A stretch of DNA of 64,000 nucleotides from Mucilaginibacter sabulilitoris (GTDB lineage: Bacteria; Bacteroidota; Bacteroidia; Sphingobacteriales; Sphingobacteriaceae), in contig NZ_CP139558.1 of assembly GCF_034262375.1 (NCBI RefSeq), positions 6,882,001 through 6,946,000 of the forward strand, in the 5' to 3' direction. Under the pieces are notes generated by a model. That model had not been told where the DNA came from. It worked only from the letters and a program-made list of their open reading frames with translations, and did no database searches. The position numbers and the translations under genes are program-made. Below are positions 26,806 to 30,190 of this stretch, piece after piece (the stretch's first letter is position 1; each line of letters begins with the position of its first letter).

Positions 26806-28521
26806 AGCCGTCTCATAAGTCAATTATGAGGCGGTTTTTTTATTTAGAGCGATTTAGATAAGCTATTAGGGAAGGCGGACTGTGTTGGTTTGTTCTGTTT
26901 TTTGGATTGGTTCAGCTGTCTTTGGGGAGATAAAAGCCTTTTTCTCAGGCTTTCCATTTTCTGAGGTTATGAGCGATGGATAATAACCCTATTTCTACCT
27001 CTGTTTTGGACATTCCTTTCAACAGGAATCGTCTGAAACCATGATTGTGCTTCAGTTGTGCGAATACCGGTTCCACATCGGCGGGTCTTCGTTTTCGGTA
27101 TTTGATGCCCTGTTCTGTATTCAATCTTTCCGTCGCTGCCTGTTTATGTTTTCTCAGACTGTGGTTGATCTCGACGATCCGGTTGCCGGGGTTTTGGTGG
27201 CATACGCCCCGCATCGGACAGCCTTCACAGTTCTGCGCCTGATAGCGGCTGATCAACTGCAGAAAACCTGAAGAAGTTATCCGCTGACCGTCGCCAACAT
27301 GGTGCATGCGCTGGCCCATCGGGCAGGTTAGATAGTTATCCGCTTCGTTATAATGCAGACTATCGTTACTGAATGCTTTGATACCTTCTTTTTGTTCCTT
27401 GTCGAACGTATTGTATTTGATATAAGCTTCAATACCTTTTTGCTGCAGCACACCATAGTTCTCGTCCGAGCCGTAACCTGCATCGGCAACGACGGCTTTT
27501 GGCTGTTCTTTATAAAGGGATTCGTACTGTTCGATATGTGATGGTAGCGTTTGGTAATCGGTCGGGGTCTGGTGCAGCGTGTAATTGAGAATGAACTGCT
27601 CTTGGGTGGAGATCTGCAGGTTATAAGCAGGCTTGAGTTGCCCATTCAGCATATGGTCTTCTTTCATCCGCATGAACGTGGCATCCGGGTCCGTCTTTGA
27701 CATACTGTTACGCCCAGCCAATAACTTTTCCTGTTCATCATATTTGGCCAGGTTCTCCGGCCAATGCTTTTTTGCATAGTTCAGCTTTTGTTTTACTTTC
27801 CCCGCCACGTCTTCCTTATCCTCCAATGCCGCGTTGATCTTTGAGATCGTTTCTTTCACTTTCTCAGGGTTGATCTCGCTGTATTCCAGCGGTGCGGTGT
27901 CTTTGAGTTCTTCAGCAGCAATACTTTGCGCATAGCCCCATAACTCATCAAGCTGGGCTTTCATCTTCTCTTTACTGTTCTTTATGCTTTTACCCCATAC
28001 AAAAGTGTACTTGTTCGCCACCGATTCGATCTTGGTGCCATCAGTGAAAACGGCCTCCTTCAATGATACAATTCCTTCCTGTTGTAATAAAAGAACGATC
28101 TGTGAGAATATCTGCTTTAGTACCCCTGATAGCTTTTCACTGCGAAAACGGTTGATGGTATTGTGGTCGGGCTTTTTCATGCCCAATAACCACATGAAGT
28201 GAACGTTCTGTGCCGCCTGGTCTTCCAGTTTACGTGATGAATACGTATTGGTCAGATAACCATAAACCAGCAGTTTCAGCATCAGCCGGGGATGAAAACT
28301 CGACGCGCCGCCGCCTTTGTACTTCCGGTTGAGTGGCTTGACATCGACCGCGTCAACCACCTGTTTAACTATCCGTACCGGATGACCCGCCGGTACCAAT
28401 TCTTCCAGTTTATACGGTAAAAACGTTAACTGGTCCGGATCATATTCCTTAAAGACTACCTTGCCTCCCATGCCTTTAAGATACACAAAAAACCGCCCCA
28501 TATTTGACTTATGAGACGGCT
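26806..28521 (-). mobile_element. IS1182-like insertion sequence
   Basis: Bounded by 34-bp inverted repeats: left 26807-26840 beginning GCCGTCTCATAAGTCAA and right 28487-28520 beginning, on the other strand, with the same 17 bases. The arms differ at 2 of 34 positions. It contains one transposase gene on the minus strand. I find no clear target duplication, so exact ends may be off by a few bases; the matching AAAAG outside both arms could extend them. Confidence 0.88.
26945..28471 (-). CDS. IS1182 family transposase
   Basis: A DDE-type transposase of about 508 residues starting MGGKVVFKEYDPDQLTFLPY at 28471; an upstream ATG at 28501 overlaps the inverted repeat. The N-terminal DUF772-type segment has SFHPRLMLKLLVYGYLTNTY, SSRKLEDQAAQN and DHNTINRFRSEKL. 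The catalytic domain has EAVFTDGTKIESVANKYTF and VVADAGYGSDENY. A Cys cluster, CEGCPMRGVCHQ, and KYRKRRPADVEPVFAQLKHN close the protein. These are the marks of the IS1182 group. The frame is intact, so the element may be active. Confidence 0.93.
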   Translation of the reverse strand: MGGKVVFKEYDPDQLTFLPYKLEELVPAGHPVRIVKQVVDAVDVKPLNRKYKGGGASSFHPRLMLKLLVYGYLTNTYSSRKLEDQAAQNVHFMWLLGMKKPDHNTINRFRSEKLSGVLKQIFSQIVLLLQQEGIVSLKEAVFTDGTKIESVANKYTFVWGKSIKNSKEKMKAQLDELWGYAQSIAAEELKDTAPLEYSEINPEKVKETISKINAALEDKEDVAGKVKQKLNYAKKHWPENLAKYDEQEKLLAGRNSMSKTDPDATFMRMKEDHMLNGQLKPAYNLQISTQEQFILNYTLHQTPTDYQTLPSHIEQYESLYKEQPKAVVADAGYGSDENYGVLQQKGIEAYIKYNTFDKEQKEGIKAFSNDSLHYNEADNYLTCPMGQRMHHVGDGQRITSSGFLQLISRYQAQNCEGCPMRGVCHQNPGNRIVEINHSLRKHKQAATERLNTEQGIKYRKRRPADVEPVFAQLKHNHGFRRFLLKGMSKTEVEIGLLSIAHNLRKWKA

Positions 28522-28622
28522 CCTTTTGTTTTCACCAATTTGTCATCCTGAGGAACGAAGGATCTATTCACAAACATGAAGTCGCTTAACAGATTCTTCG
28601 TTCCTACCCATGACATAATAAT

Positions 28623-29921
28623 TTAAGCAGGCACAAGTTTCATATTTAATTCAAGGGCGAGTCTTTCTAATCGCCTTTGTTTCTGTTCTTTAAGAATGTT
28701 CTCATACGAGTGAAGGCCCTTCTCTACAAAGTCGGCGCCTTTTACGATTAAACGCCAGTATTGAGCAGCCAGTTTTCTGGCTGTAGCTTTAATAGCTATC
28801 GCGGGGCCTTTTCTACCCCTTAATCTTCTTGCAAATGAACCCCAGCCGATATACTTGCTGTTCAATAATCCATGGGCCATCTGTTTGAATATTTGCCCAA
28901 CGGTCGGCTTACCCTTGCTTTTACTTTTGTTTTTCTTTCCTGAACGGTCATGCCCCGGCGATAAACCAAGCCAACTGGTGAAATGTTTTTCACTTGGCCA
29001 TCGGCTAAGATCCGAACCTACCTCTGTGTATAACTGTAACCAGTTGTAATCTGTAATACCCGGGAGTTTGGTCGCGTCTTTACCATCAAATATCTTCAAC
29101 AAGTGATCCCCCAGATTATCGATATTAGGTTGGTTGTGACGGATCGCTTTGCGTTTCCCGCCGCTTATTCCCGGCGGTAGGCTCTTGTCCCTGTTGATCC
29201 GCTGTAAAACACGATCAATCTGACTGTCGCATTCCTGTATCTGACCCTGATAAAAACCATAGCCCTTATAGGCCTGACCCAAGGCAAAAAGCCCCTGGGC
29301 TGTATAATGGCCCTGCAAGGCCTTCAATAGTTCTTCTCCTTTATTCTCCCTGATCTTTTTATGGCACAGTGAAAACAACTTATCAGGATCACGCTCACCC
29401 TGCAGTATCGCATCGATCAACGCCATGCCGCTTACTCCATGGACCTGGCTTAATACCTCCGGCAAACGGATATTCATTTCTATCAGTGCCTTCTGCATGT
29501 GTTGAACATGCATGGCCGCACTCCGAAGGTGATCCTCCCGAAGACGCTGATAACTACGCAATTCTTTGATATGCCCCTCTGAAACATAACAGCGGTTCAG
29601 TAAACCATAGCTATGCAACTGCTGTATCCACTGGCAATCCTTTACATCTGTTTTTCTGCCTGGTAACTGCCGTGTCTGCCGACCGTCAACAAGCCACACA
29701 TCTAATCCCGCATCCAAAAGAATATCATAAAGCACATACCAGTAAACTCCTGTCGCTTCCATGGCTACCGTACTTACTTTATGCTCCAATAAATAATGCT
29801 TAAGTGATACCAGATCACTGGTGAAAGTTTCAAACGAACGAACCGGCTGACTTTCAAGCCCCACGAATAGCTTACGGGCGCCTATATCTATGCCCGCTGC
29901 ATGAAAATGCATCTTTTCCAT
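28623..29921 (-). CDS. IS110 family DEDD recombinase (transposase)
   Basis: 432 residues. The N-terminal RuvC-like DEDD domain shows D12 (AAGIDIGARKLFVG), E55 (TVAMEATGVYWYV), and D92 and D95 (GRKTDVKDCQW). The C-terminal transposase_20 domain has KLPGITDYNWLQLYTEVGSD and FTSWLGLSPGHDRSGKKNKS, whose Ser is the expected covalent nucleophile. Family members (IS621 is the type case) recombine donor and target under guidance of a bridge RNA. The frame is intact, so the element may be functional. Confidence 0.95.
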   Translation of the reverse strand: MEKMHFHAAGIDIGARKLFVGLESQPVRSFETFTSDLVSLKHYLLEHKVSTVAMEATGVYWYVLYDILLDAGLDVWLVDGRQTRQLPGRKTDVKDCQWIQQLHSYGLLNRCYVSEGHIKELRSYQRLREDHLRSAAMHVQHMQKALIEMNIRLPEVLSQVHGVSGMALIDAILQGERDPDKLFSLCHKKIRENKGEELLKALQGHYTAQGLFALGQAYKGYGFYQGQIQECDSQIDRVLQRINRDKSLPPGISGGKRKAIRHNQPNIDNLGDHLLKIFDGKDATKLPGITDYNWLQLYTEVGSDLSRWPSEKHFTSWLGLSPGHDRSGKKNKSKSKGKPTVGQIFKQMAHGLLNSKYIGWGSFARRLRGRKGPAIAIKATARKLAAQYWRLIVKGADFVEKGLHSYENILKEQKQRRLERLALELNMKLVPA

Positions 29922-30143
29922 CCTTATAATCTTTTTTAAGAAGCCGTGCCCGAAGGAGTTTAAAGAAAAGACAGGCTACCCATCGGACAAATCACTCTTG
30001 TAAGGATCGTACCATACCTTCAGACTCTATGCTTCAGAACCATACTCAGCAACAGGCAATAAGCACTATAACTTGATCGGACACACTGCACGGCTCAGCA
30101 AAGCTATGTCATTTCTCCTTCAGAGGCCAAGGATTTAATCACT
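29922..30143 (-). ncRNA. Putative bridge RNA region of the IS110 element
   Basis: A 222-base non-coding left end, transcribed leftward. It contains CTACCCAT (29976-29983, plus strand), identical to the element's other terminus with core (28604-28611). It also contains AATCACT (29990-29996), identical to the near terminus with core (30137-30143). The two copies are 6 bases apart, as expected for a donor-binding loop. Further upstream in the RNA, 30028-30044 is a TATG/CATA stem with a 9-base loop containing TCAGAA (plus strand). That matches the target from the core T onward (T-CAGAA). The right-donor copy is in the same sense as the DNA, which does not fit the simplest pairing scheme. Confidence 0.6.
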
Positions 30144-30190
30144 CAGAATGACACACAGCTTTTGTTTATCTCCCCTTTAGGGGTTGGGGC

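What the first reader, a model, noticed from the sequence alone, without database searches (positions are those of the whole stretch)
28604..30143. IS110 element with exact ends, CT core and self-matching leader: a candidate bridge RNA
Seen: the element splits a palindromic host repeat, so the empty site can be rebuilt (TTCGTTC-CT-CAGAATG) and the duplicated core CT read at 28604 and 30142. The 222-base non-coding end upstream of the recombinase contains CTACCCAT (29976-29983), identical to one terminus plus core. AATCACT (29990-29996) is identical to the other terminus plus core, only 6 bases away. A TATG/CATA hairpin (30028-30044) has a loop with TCAGAA, which matches the target from the core T onward. 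Known: IS110 recombinases such as IS621 use a bridge RNA with donor and target loops. Inference: this leader encodes such an RNA, and the target loop explains insertion in the GTCATCCTGA repeat family.
Basis: partly seen in the sequence, partly recalled or inferred. Interest (0 to 1): 0.78.

Follow-up and report, generated by a model that had tools for sequence, protein, structure and literature searches.

The report
RNA-guided jumping gene in repeats
This is a bacterial jumping gene that carries its own guide RNA; comparison with relatives shows which RNA letters pick the repeat it lands in, and that two of those guides sit in the opposite order to the best-studied example.

Summary
The finding is real and its general reading holds in part. 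An IS110 element (28606-30141, recombinase on the minus strand) has 11 copies in this genome, all at GTCATNCTGAG-type repeats, flanked by AG. Its leader encodes a structured RNA (29941-30096, minus), supported by covariation over 21 elements. A covariance model found it in 17 of 39 loci not used to build it.

Blind scans place the left target guide at 30045-30052 and the left donor guide at 29976-29983. Its other two matches are not guides: near relatives keep those stretches although their ends or targets differ.

The right target guide lies 5' of the left one (30070-30075). This reverses IS621 and ISEc21 and matches the order reported for IS1111, although the RNA lies upstream as in IS110. 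The core on the recombinase strand is AG, not CT. The right donor guide is unresolved, and nothing was tested experimentally.

Verdict: a bridge-RNA element of a known kind, with a guide layout not described in the text that I read.

The parts
28606..30141 (-). IS110-family element (1536 bp, without the core dinucleotides)
   Evidence: 11 copies, 99-100% identical, same ends
28604..28605 (.). core dinucleotide, right end of element (AG on the minus strand)
   Evidence: shared by 11 of 11 copies
30142..30143 (.). core dinucleotide, left end of element (AG on the minus strand)
   Evidence: shared by 11 of 11 copies
28623..29921 (-). 432-aa DEDD/serine recombinase
   Evidence: Pfam PF01548 and PF02371, NCBIfam NF033542, IS621 fold Z 18.2
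29941..30096 (-). bridge RNA, conserved fold
   Evidence: covariation 0.545 vs 0.217 shuffled; model R1 138 bits; exactly 11 hits in the genome
30045..30052 (-). left target guide (LTG) TTGCTGAG
   Evidence: largest excess of 8080 scanned combinations against targets, 6.29/7 vs 4.20 permuted
30070..30075 (-). right target guide (RTG) CAAGTT, 5' of the LTG; pairs the top strand AG-CTTG with one G-T wobble
29976..29983 (-). left donor guide (LDG) ATGGGTAG
   Evidence: 6.45/7 vs 4.19 permuted; donor end follows in 6 of 7 guide differences between hand-paired elements
29956..29965 (-). tentative right donor guide (RDG) CTTTAAACTC
   Evidence: hand model in six near relatives only; not the best hit of the blind scan
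30088..30096 (-). helix P1 5' strand (closes the whole RNA)
   Evidence: 8 of 9 pairs with changes on both sides, 78.9% of cells paired
29941..29949 (-). helix P1 3' strand
30078..30082 (-). helix P2 5' strand (stem of the target loop)
   Evidence: 95.2% of cells paired, 1 of 5 pairs with changes on both sides
30052..30069 (-). hairpin P3 between RTG and LTG
   Evidence: 95.2% of cells paired, 3 of 6 pairs with changes on both sides
29985..30013 (-). hairpin immediately 5' of the LDG (helix 5)
   Evidence: 79.4% of cells paired, 3 of 6 pairs with changes on both sides
30099..30106 (-). TAGCTTTG, resembles the Bacteroidota -7 box TAnnTTTG (consensus recalled, no call)
   Evidence: exact in 11 of 21 leaders (11 of 16 from the window's family, 0 of 5 from another family), counted by eye
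30105..30112 (-). subterminal inverted repeat, left copy ATGACATA
   Evidence: 8 bp; covaries across 20 elements
28610..28617 (-). subterminal inverted repeat, right copy TATGTCAT
30142..30152 (-). left target half GTCATTCTGAG (host repeat, core included)
28592..28605 (-). core plus right target half AG-GAACGAAGAATC (host repeat)

Best explanation
This is an IS110-family insertion sequence whose upstream leader is transcribed into a bridge RNA with a conserved fold of about 156 nt. Shown by sequence comparison: a closing stem (P1); a target loop in which the right target guide, hairpin P3 and the left target guide follow one another; and a donor part in which a hairpin is followed by the left donor guide. 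Inferred from work on IS621 and ISEc21: the recombinase binds this RNA, brings the excised circle together with a GTCATNCTGAG repeat, exchanges strands at AG by the RuvC/serine active site, and so inserts in one orientation. The left guide (7-8 nt) sets the target; the right side is loosely specified, which fits the variable right flanks among the 11 copies.
For: 11 of 11 copies share ends and AG core; the left flank is GTCATNCTGAG in 9 of 11 and GTCATCCTGAGAGAG in 2 of 11. The genome holds 150 GTCATNCTGAG sites against 0 for the reversed control pattern. Blind scan of 21 elements: target signal peaks at the LTG and donor signal at the LDG (setting aside the leader start matching itself), both ending at the core and in the expected strand sense. 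Between hand-paired disjoint elements, 16 of 25 LTG differences and 6 of 7 LDG differences are followed by the DNA. Fold: 85.0% of cells paired vs 65.7% shuffled, covariation 0.545 vs 0.217 +- 0.015, 0 of 500 shuffles as high. Model R1 hit 17 of 39 loci not used to build it, E <= 0.02. RTG: family-wise P 0.002-0.004 by excess for 6-mers in 20 elements; in 15 other elements own-target run score 5.07 vs 3.18 for other targets, 0 of 20,000 permutations, rank 1 of 190 positions. Recombinase: DEDD and serine positions invariant in 18 sequences, IS621 fold Z 18.2.
Against: No expression or binding data. The RDG was not found convincingly. RTG support is weaker by the z-based maximum (P 0.016-0.068 for 6-mers) and absent for 4-mers (P 0.10-0.16 by excess); L035 shows no RTG match. 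In G000 only 2 of 11 copies (L002, L008) carry the right flank CTTG that the RTG would pair best. The permutations do not correct for relatedness. Two measures are weaker: pairs with a change on both sides 24 vs 21.0 (17 of 500 shuffles as high) and further pair types 62 vs 58.1 (71 of 500). Two copies (L003, L004) sit 4 bases off the usual register. Rfam had no match at gathering scores.
Confidence: 0.9

Rival explanations
1. The leader RNA is a cis-acting 5' UTR or regulatory RNA for the recombinase (as described for ISPpu9), and site choice comes from the protein recognising the repeat.
For: The RNA lies directly upstream of the start codon, and small RNAs regulate tnp in ISPpu9 (title and start of abstract of PMC8450116, search listing).
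Against: A UTR would not be expected to hold 7-nt stretches that follow the target and the donor end across elements. Relatives with recognisable recombinases use other targets with matching guide changes.
Confidence: 0.05
2. It is a bridge RNA in the IS621 layout (LTG, stem loop, RTG) and the RTG signal 5' of P3 is an artefact of relatedness.
For: In one search the z-based maximum statistic is only marginal, and permutation ignores phylogeny.
Against: The place came first of 190 positions in 15 elements outside the first set and first of 195 in 8 of these (P 0.014). No significant signal appeared on the 3' side of the LTG.
Confidence: 0.12
3. The self-matches in the leader are accidental.
For: AATCACT (P 0.04) and TCAGAA (P 0.11) are near chance in one sequence, and they do not follow ends or targets in relatives.
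Against: The LDG and LTG persist and covary.
Confidence: 0.02

Closest known systems
IS621 (IS110 family, Piv/IS492 branch)
   Same: DEDD RuvC plus serine Tnp recombinase, RNA in the left end, target and donor guides, left guides end in the core and pair the bottom strand, REP-like repeats as targets
   Different: Core AG instead of CT; RTG lies 5' of the LTG (IS621: LTG, stem loop, RTG); one closing stem P1 around the whole RNA; recombinase 432 aa versus 315-330 in that branch (PMC11187229 section 6); covarying 5-8 bp subterminal inverted repeats; possible promoter box inside the left end
ISEc21 (IS110 type, seekRNA)
   Same: RNA upstream of the gene; eight distant relatives collected here (L206, L208-L214) sit in what I took, from recall, to be IS3-family genes, the kind of target ISEc21 has
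   Different: ISEc21 has the top-strand match 3' of the bottom-strand match; here it is 5'
IS1111 group (ISEc11, ISPa11, ISKpn4)
   Same: Top-strand complement 5' of bottom-strand complement in the RNA; subterminal inverted repeats; ISPa11 also uses REP targets
   Different: RNA upstream, not downstream; recombinase 432 aa, not 330-350; inverted repeats shorter and asymmetric
IS110-proper subgroup with 395-455 aa transposases (PMC11187229 section 6)
   Same: Length and upstream RNA; by length the most likely home of this element (no tree built)
   Different: Guide order of that subgroup is not stated in the text I read

Membership tests
IS110 family | DEDD RuvC domain and Tnp domain with catalytic serine | tested here: met
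   Pfam and NCBIfam above cut-offs; D12, E55, D92, D95 and S327 invariant in 18 sequences; S327 aligned to IS621 S241 (numbering offset of 2 inferred)
IS110 family | recombinase fold like IS621 | tested here: met
   AlphaFold model pLDDT 82.7, but residues 324-337 around the serine are under 50; IS621 8wt6 Z 18.2, rmsd 4.8, 291 aligned
IS110 group | structured RNA in the left end | tested here: met
bridge RNA | guides that covary with target and donor | tested here: met
   LTG and LDG; RTG
bridge RNA | right donor guide | tested here: inconclusive
   one search gives several competing places; hand model only in six near relatives
IS621-type subgroup | CT core on the recombinase strand | tested here: not met
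   AG in 11 of 11 copies
IS621-type subgroup | LTG 5' of RTG | tested here: not met
IS1111 group | RNA downstream of the gene | tested here: not met
IS1111 group | top-strand guide 5' of bottom-strand guide | tested here: met
   against PMC11187229
IS1111 group | subterminal inverted repeats of 7-17 bp | tested here: inconclusive
   8 bp here, 5-8 bp in 20 elements, mean 6.75 vs 4.65 permuted
IS1111 group | recombinase of 330-350 aa | tested here: not met
   432 aa
IS1111 group | recombinase falls in the IS1111 clade | not tested
   no IS1111 reference proteins were gathered and no tree was built
bridge RNA | RNA is expressed and binds the recombinase | not testable with these tools
   no expression data held

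The most novel reading that the evidence does not exclude
The long-recombinase branch of IS110 carries a third, undescribed bridge-RNA layout: an upstream RNA closed by one stem, with the target guides permuted to the IS1111 order (RTG, hairpin, LTG), an AG or AA core and covarying subterminal inverted repeats. It would link the IS110 and IS1111 types and offer a differently wired programmable recombinase.
Probability: 0.4. Interest if true: 0.68.

Novelty: new variant of a known kind. Interest (0 to 1): 0.55.

Why it matters
Bridge recombinases interest genome engineers, and both solved examples in the PDB search are IS621-like. The published contrast is that IS110-type RNAs are mostly upstream with one guide order and IS1111-type RNAs mostly downstream with the other (PMC11187229). 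Here position and order are uncoupled, in relatives from Bacteroidota and Pseudomonadota, with a different core dinucleotide. That is directly testable and would widen the set of usable cores and RNA scaffolds. It also gives a worked case of an RNA-guided element that uses a dispersed repeat as its landing ground.

Tried and rejected
Single-sequence folding of the leader: no more stable than shuffles (z -0.13); rejected as evidence. Rfam: no family at gathering scores. RTG on the 3' side of the LTG, as in IS621: no significant signal. RDG: searched; several places pass the excess test, the best lie past P1 and look confounded by relatedness, so it was left open. IS621 N84 as an explanation of the core: its aligned residue (read by hand) is D in near relatives but N in others with the same AG core; rejected. 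A RAYT transposase spreading the repeats: one Y1_Tnp frame with 2 stops in the genome, no support. Sigma-70 and terminator scans were at chance. phmmer of the single protein against PDB found nothing; the profile found IS621 and ISCro4. Two further searches for more elements with other recombinases as query gave few new ones. Literature: (GTCATCCTGAG: 47 papers hold it, 20 listed, none relevant by title), in an open-access library only. The figures of PMC11208160 (Fig. 6d and Extended Data Fig. 10c show six diverse RNAs) could not be seen, so this layout may already be drawn there.

Data left out: truncated copies L031, L032 and L118, and the M. gossypii set (leaders like G234, contigs end inside the element), were not used. 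L128 and L136 were left out because their left boundary could be set only by the guide match. For one search I gave 39 loci; L107, L124-L126, L129, L130, L137, L138 and L141 were not given (L107 carries a broken copy; for the others the printed stretch before the match showed coding sequence or a contig start). In one search, 15 elements were used; L135, L186, L191, L200 and both L207 hits were dropped because no clear right end was found, and L182 and the other model misses were not tried. L128's right end there was the third candidate (6 of 7), picked by hand; L208, L209 and L212 were not model hits and were read by hand; a register shift of up to 2 was allowed. In one search the segment register was set by hand (one base further 5' in L206 and L211). 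In G369, G136 and G034 the junction is uncertain by 1-2 bases; one search was also run without them: the top target place then moved by 1-2 columns, and the LDG stayed the leading donor place apart from self-matches of the leader start.

Full report
What is there. The window lies in one 7.55 Mb contig. The host is probably a Mucilaginibacter: a same-genus genome (G308, L103) prints the same leader as M. flavus CECT 7857 (L034). A 1536-bp element at 28606-30141 carries a 432-aa IS110 recombinase on the minus strand. Eleven copies, 99-100% identical, occur in the genome. All 11 start TGATTAAATCC and end CATGGGT on the recombinase strand, each end flanked by AG. The left flank is GTCATNCTGAG in 9 of 11 and GTCATCCTGAGAGAG in 2 of 11; the right flank varies (GAAC 4, CTTG 2, CGCA 2, GTAC 1, CTCG 1, CTCC 1). 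The genome has 150 GTCATNCTGAG sites; the reversed control pattern has none. Of the 100 sites that call lists, 92 are not insertions, and 45 of these have C at N (counted by eye). None of the 9 canonical insertions does (P 0.004). The target guide has G there.

The RNA. Folding the single leader is uninformative. I collected relatives and set the ends of 22 elements from repeated copies or from homology of the ends. One leader per element was aligned for 21 of them. Consensus folds made separately for six groups show the closing stem P1 and the long stem P4 in five; the pair G016/G384 folds otherwise on its own, and P2, P3 and the hairpin before the donor guide appear in some groups only. Counted on all 21, 85.0% of cells are paired against 65.7% after shuffling; covariation is 0.545 against 0.217 +- 0.015 (0 of 500), and slid versions reach at most 0.203. 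Two coarser measures are weaker: pairs with a change on both sides 24 vs 21.0 (17 of 500) and further pair types 62 vs 58.1 (71 of 500). The structure came from the same alignment, so the test on other loci matters: a model built from it hit 17 of 39 loci not used to build it, with E <= 0.02. The other 22 gave nothing up to E 1; some of these are cut off upstream or are distant. In the own genome it hits exactly the 11 copies.

The left guides. For every leader column, DNA offset and sense I counted 7-mer agreement with the element's own target or donor and compared it with permuted partners (8080 combinations). For targets the largest excess is at minus 30051-30045 (TGCTGAG) against the last 7 bases up to and including the core, same sense, 6.29/7 against 4.20. 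For donors it is at 29982-29976 (TGGGTAG) against the last 7 bases of the right end, 6.45/7 against 4.19; when three elements with uncertain junctions are left out, the leader start matching itself ranks higher, as it must. Both are in the sense that pairs with the bottom strand, as IS621 left guides do (PMC11208160 section 6, PMC11208158 sections 7-8, read). Between disjoint pairs of elements that I paired by hand, 16 of 25 LTG differences and 6 of 7 LDG differences are matched by both DNAs. Examples: G162 TTGTTGAG with ATGTTGAG; G114 ATTGCGAG with ATTGCGAG; G739 GTCGTGAG with GTCGTGAG; G384 CATGGTAG with AATGGTAG. Poor fits are too: Mfla matches 5 of 8, G370a and G758 5.5 on average, and Lich's donor end is shifted by one base.

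The right target guide. The strongest opposite-sense signal with the right target half is directly 5' of P3, at minus 30075-30070 (CAAGTT), which pairs with AG-CTTG with one wobble. In 20 elements the family-wise P is 0.002-0.004 for 6-mers and 0.004-0.006 for 5-mers by excess, but 0.016-0.068 and 0.010-0.10 by z, and 4-mers are not significant (0.10-0.16). In 8 distant relatives outside that set the own pairing there is the best of 195 places; permutation P is 0.014 for pairs and 0.035 for contiguous pairs (register set by hand). In 15 elements outside the set whose right ends were found by the donor guide, the own run score is 5.07 against 3.18 for other targets (0 of 20,000 permutations) and the place is first of 190, the next three being its immediate neighbours. 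L035 fails (1.0). The 15 include the 8, and some share targets. So the order is RTG, hairpin, LTG. IS621 has LTG, stem loop, RTG (PMC11208158 section 7). PMC11187229 (sections 6, 12 and 14 read, plus passages of abstract, introduction and section 9) reports the top-strand match 5' in IS1111 seekRNAs and 3' in ISEc21, and the RNA downstream in most IS1111 and upstream in most IS110 types. The present element combines the IS110 position with the IS1111 order.

Other differences. The core on the recombinase strand is AG; IS621 uses CT and its T is called almost invariant (PMC11208158 section 8). A subterminal inverted repeat of 5-8 bp covaries between the two ends in 20 elements (mean 6.75 against 4.65 +- 0.36 permuted). 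A TAnnTTTG box (Bacteroidota -7 consensus, recalled) lies inside the left end just before P1, exact in 11 of 16 leaders of the window's family and 0 of 5 of another family of the phylum. If it is a promoter, the RNA may be made from the integrated copy; in IS621 the promoter forms on the circle (PMC11208160 section 5). The right donor guide remains open.

CTACCCAT is the LDG. AATCACT and TCAGAA are not guides: G234, Lich, Mfla and G370a keep GTGATTTGTCCG and GGTTCCGAAG although their element starts are TGTTTAAA, TTTTAAAA, TTATAAAA and TGTTAAAA, and G162 keeps nearly the same second stretch with another target.

Recombinase. The profile reaches only IS621 and ISCro4 in PDB. The model superposes on IS621 with Z 18.2, although the serine loop (324-337) is of low confidence. 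Catalytic positions are invariant in 18 relatives. At 432 aa it fits the 395-455 aa subgroup that includes IS110 (PMC11187229 section 6); I built no tree with named IS1111 members.

Standing. Bridge RNAs and IS110 insertion into REP-like repeats are known (PMC11208160, sections 5, 6, 12, 21 and 43 read; PMC1525189, abstract only). My searches of the open-access library listed no paper that by title or abstract start concerns this element, its repeat or this layout; figures and subscription papers were not seen.

Noticed in passing
L022, L025, L028, L042, L057, L058, L104, L106, L107, L110, L111, L114, L143, L144, L146, L147: Stand-alone units of about 46 bp, GTCATNCTGAG-T-(about 25 nt)-TGAAGGNGAAATGACA, often with a few differences in the head, look like target half plus the first 37-42 bp of the element's left end but are not followed by the RNA (its weaker cases L037, L038, L059 and L094 are left out here). 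The left end may be a relic or source of a genus-wide short repeat family.
   Followed up: partly
L146 minus strand, near 850: A solo unit that reads GTCATGGGTAG-TGATAAG...ATGACA, i.e. right end, core and left end abutted as in an excised circle.
   Followed up: no
L003 and L006 (G000:C1:6287529 and 1726689): The repeat halves are mismatched (CATCC with GCATG; CATGC with GGATC) and the copies are in opposite orientation, as expected after inversion by recombination between two copies. L005 and L011 also have mismatched halves.
   Followed up: no
L121-L123 (G384): A related element whose target guide CATGGTAG matches its target GTCAATGGTAG, which equals the right-end motif of G084, G114 and G176; it may insert at relics of its own relatives.
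   Followed up: partly
L206, L208-L214: Distant plasmid-borne relatives share a run-of-A target and guide (TCAAAAAAC-type); I took the split genes to be IS3-family transposase genes from recall.
   Followed up: partly
L127/L139 (G758:C20): Tandem pair: one copy inserted exactly at the right end of the other, where its target guide partly matches the donor end.
   Followed up: no
26945-28501 (-): A complete-looking IS1182-family transposase (NF033551, 440 bits) lies directly beside the same repeat.
   Followed up: no
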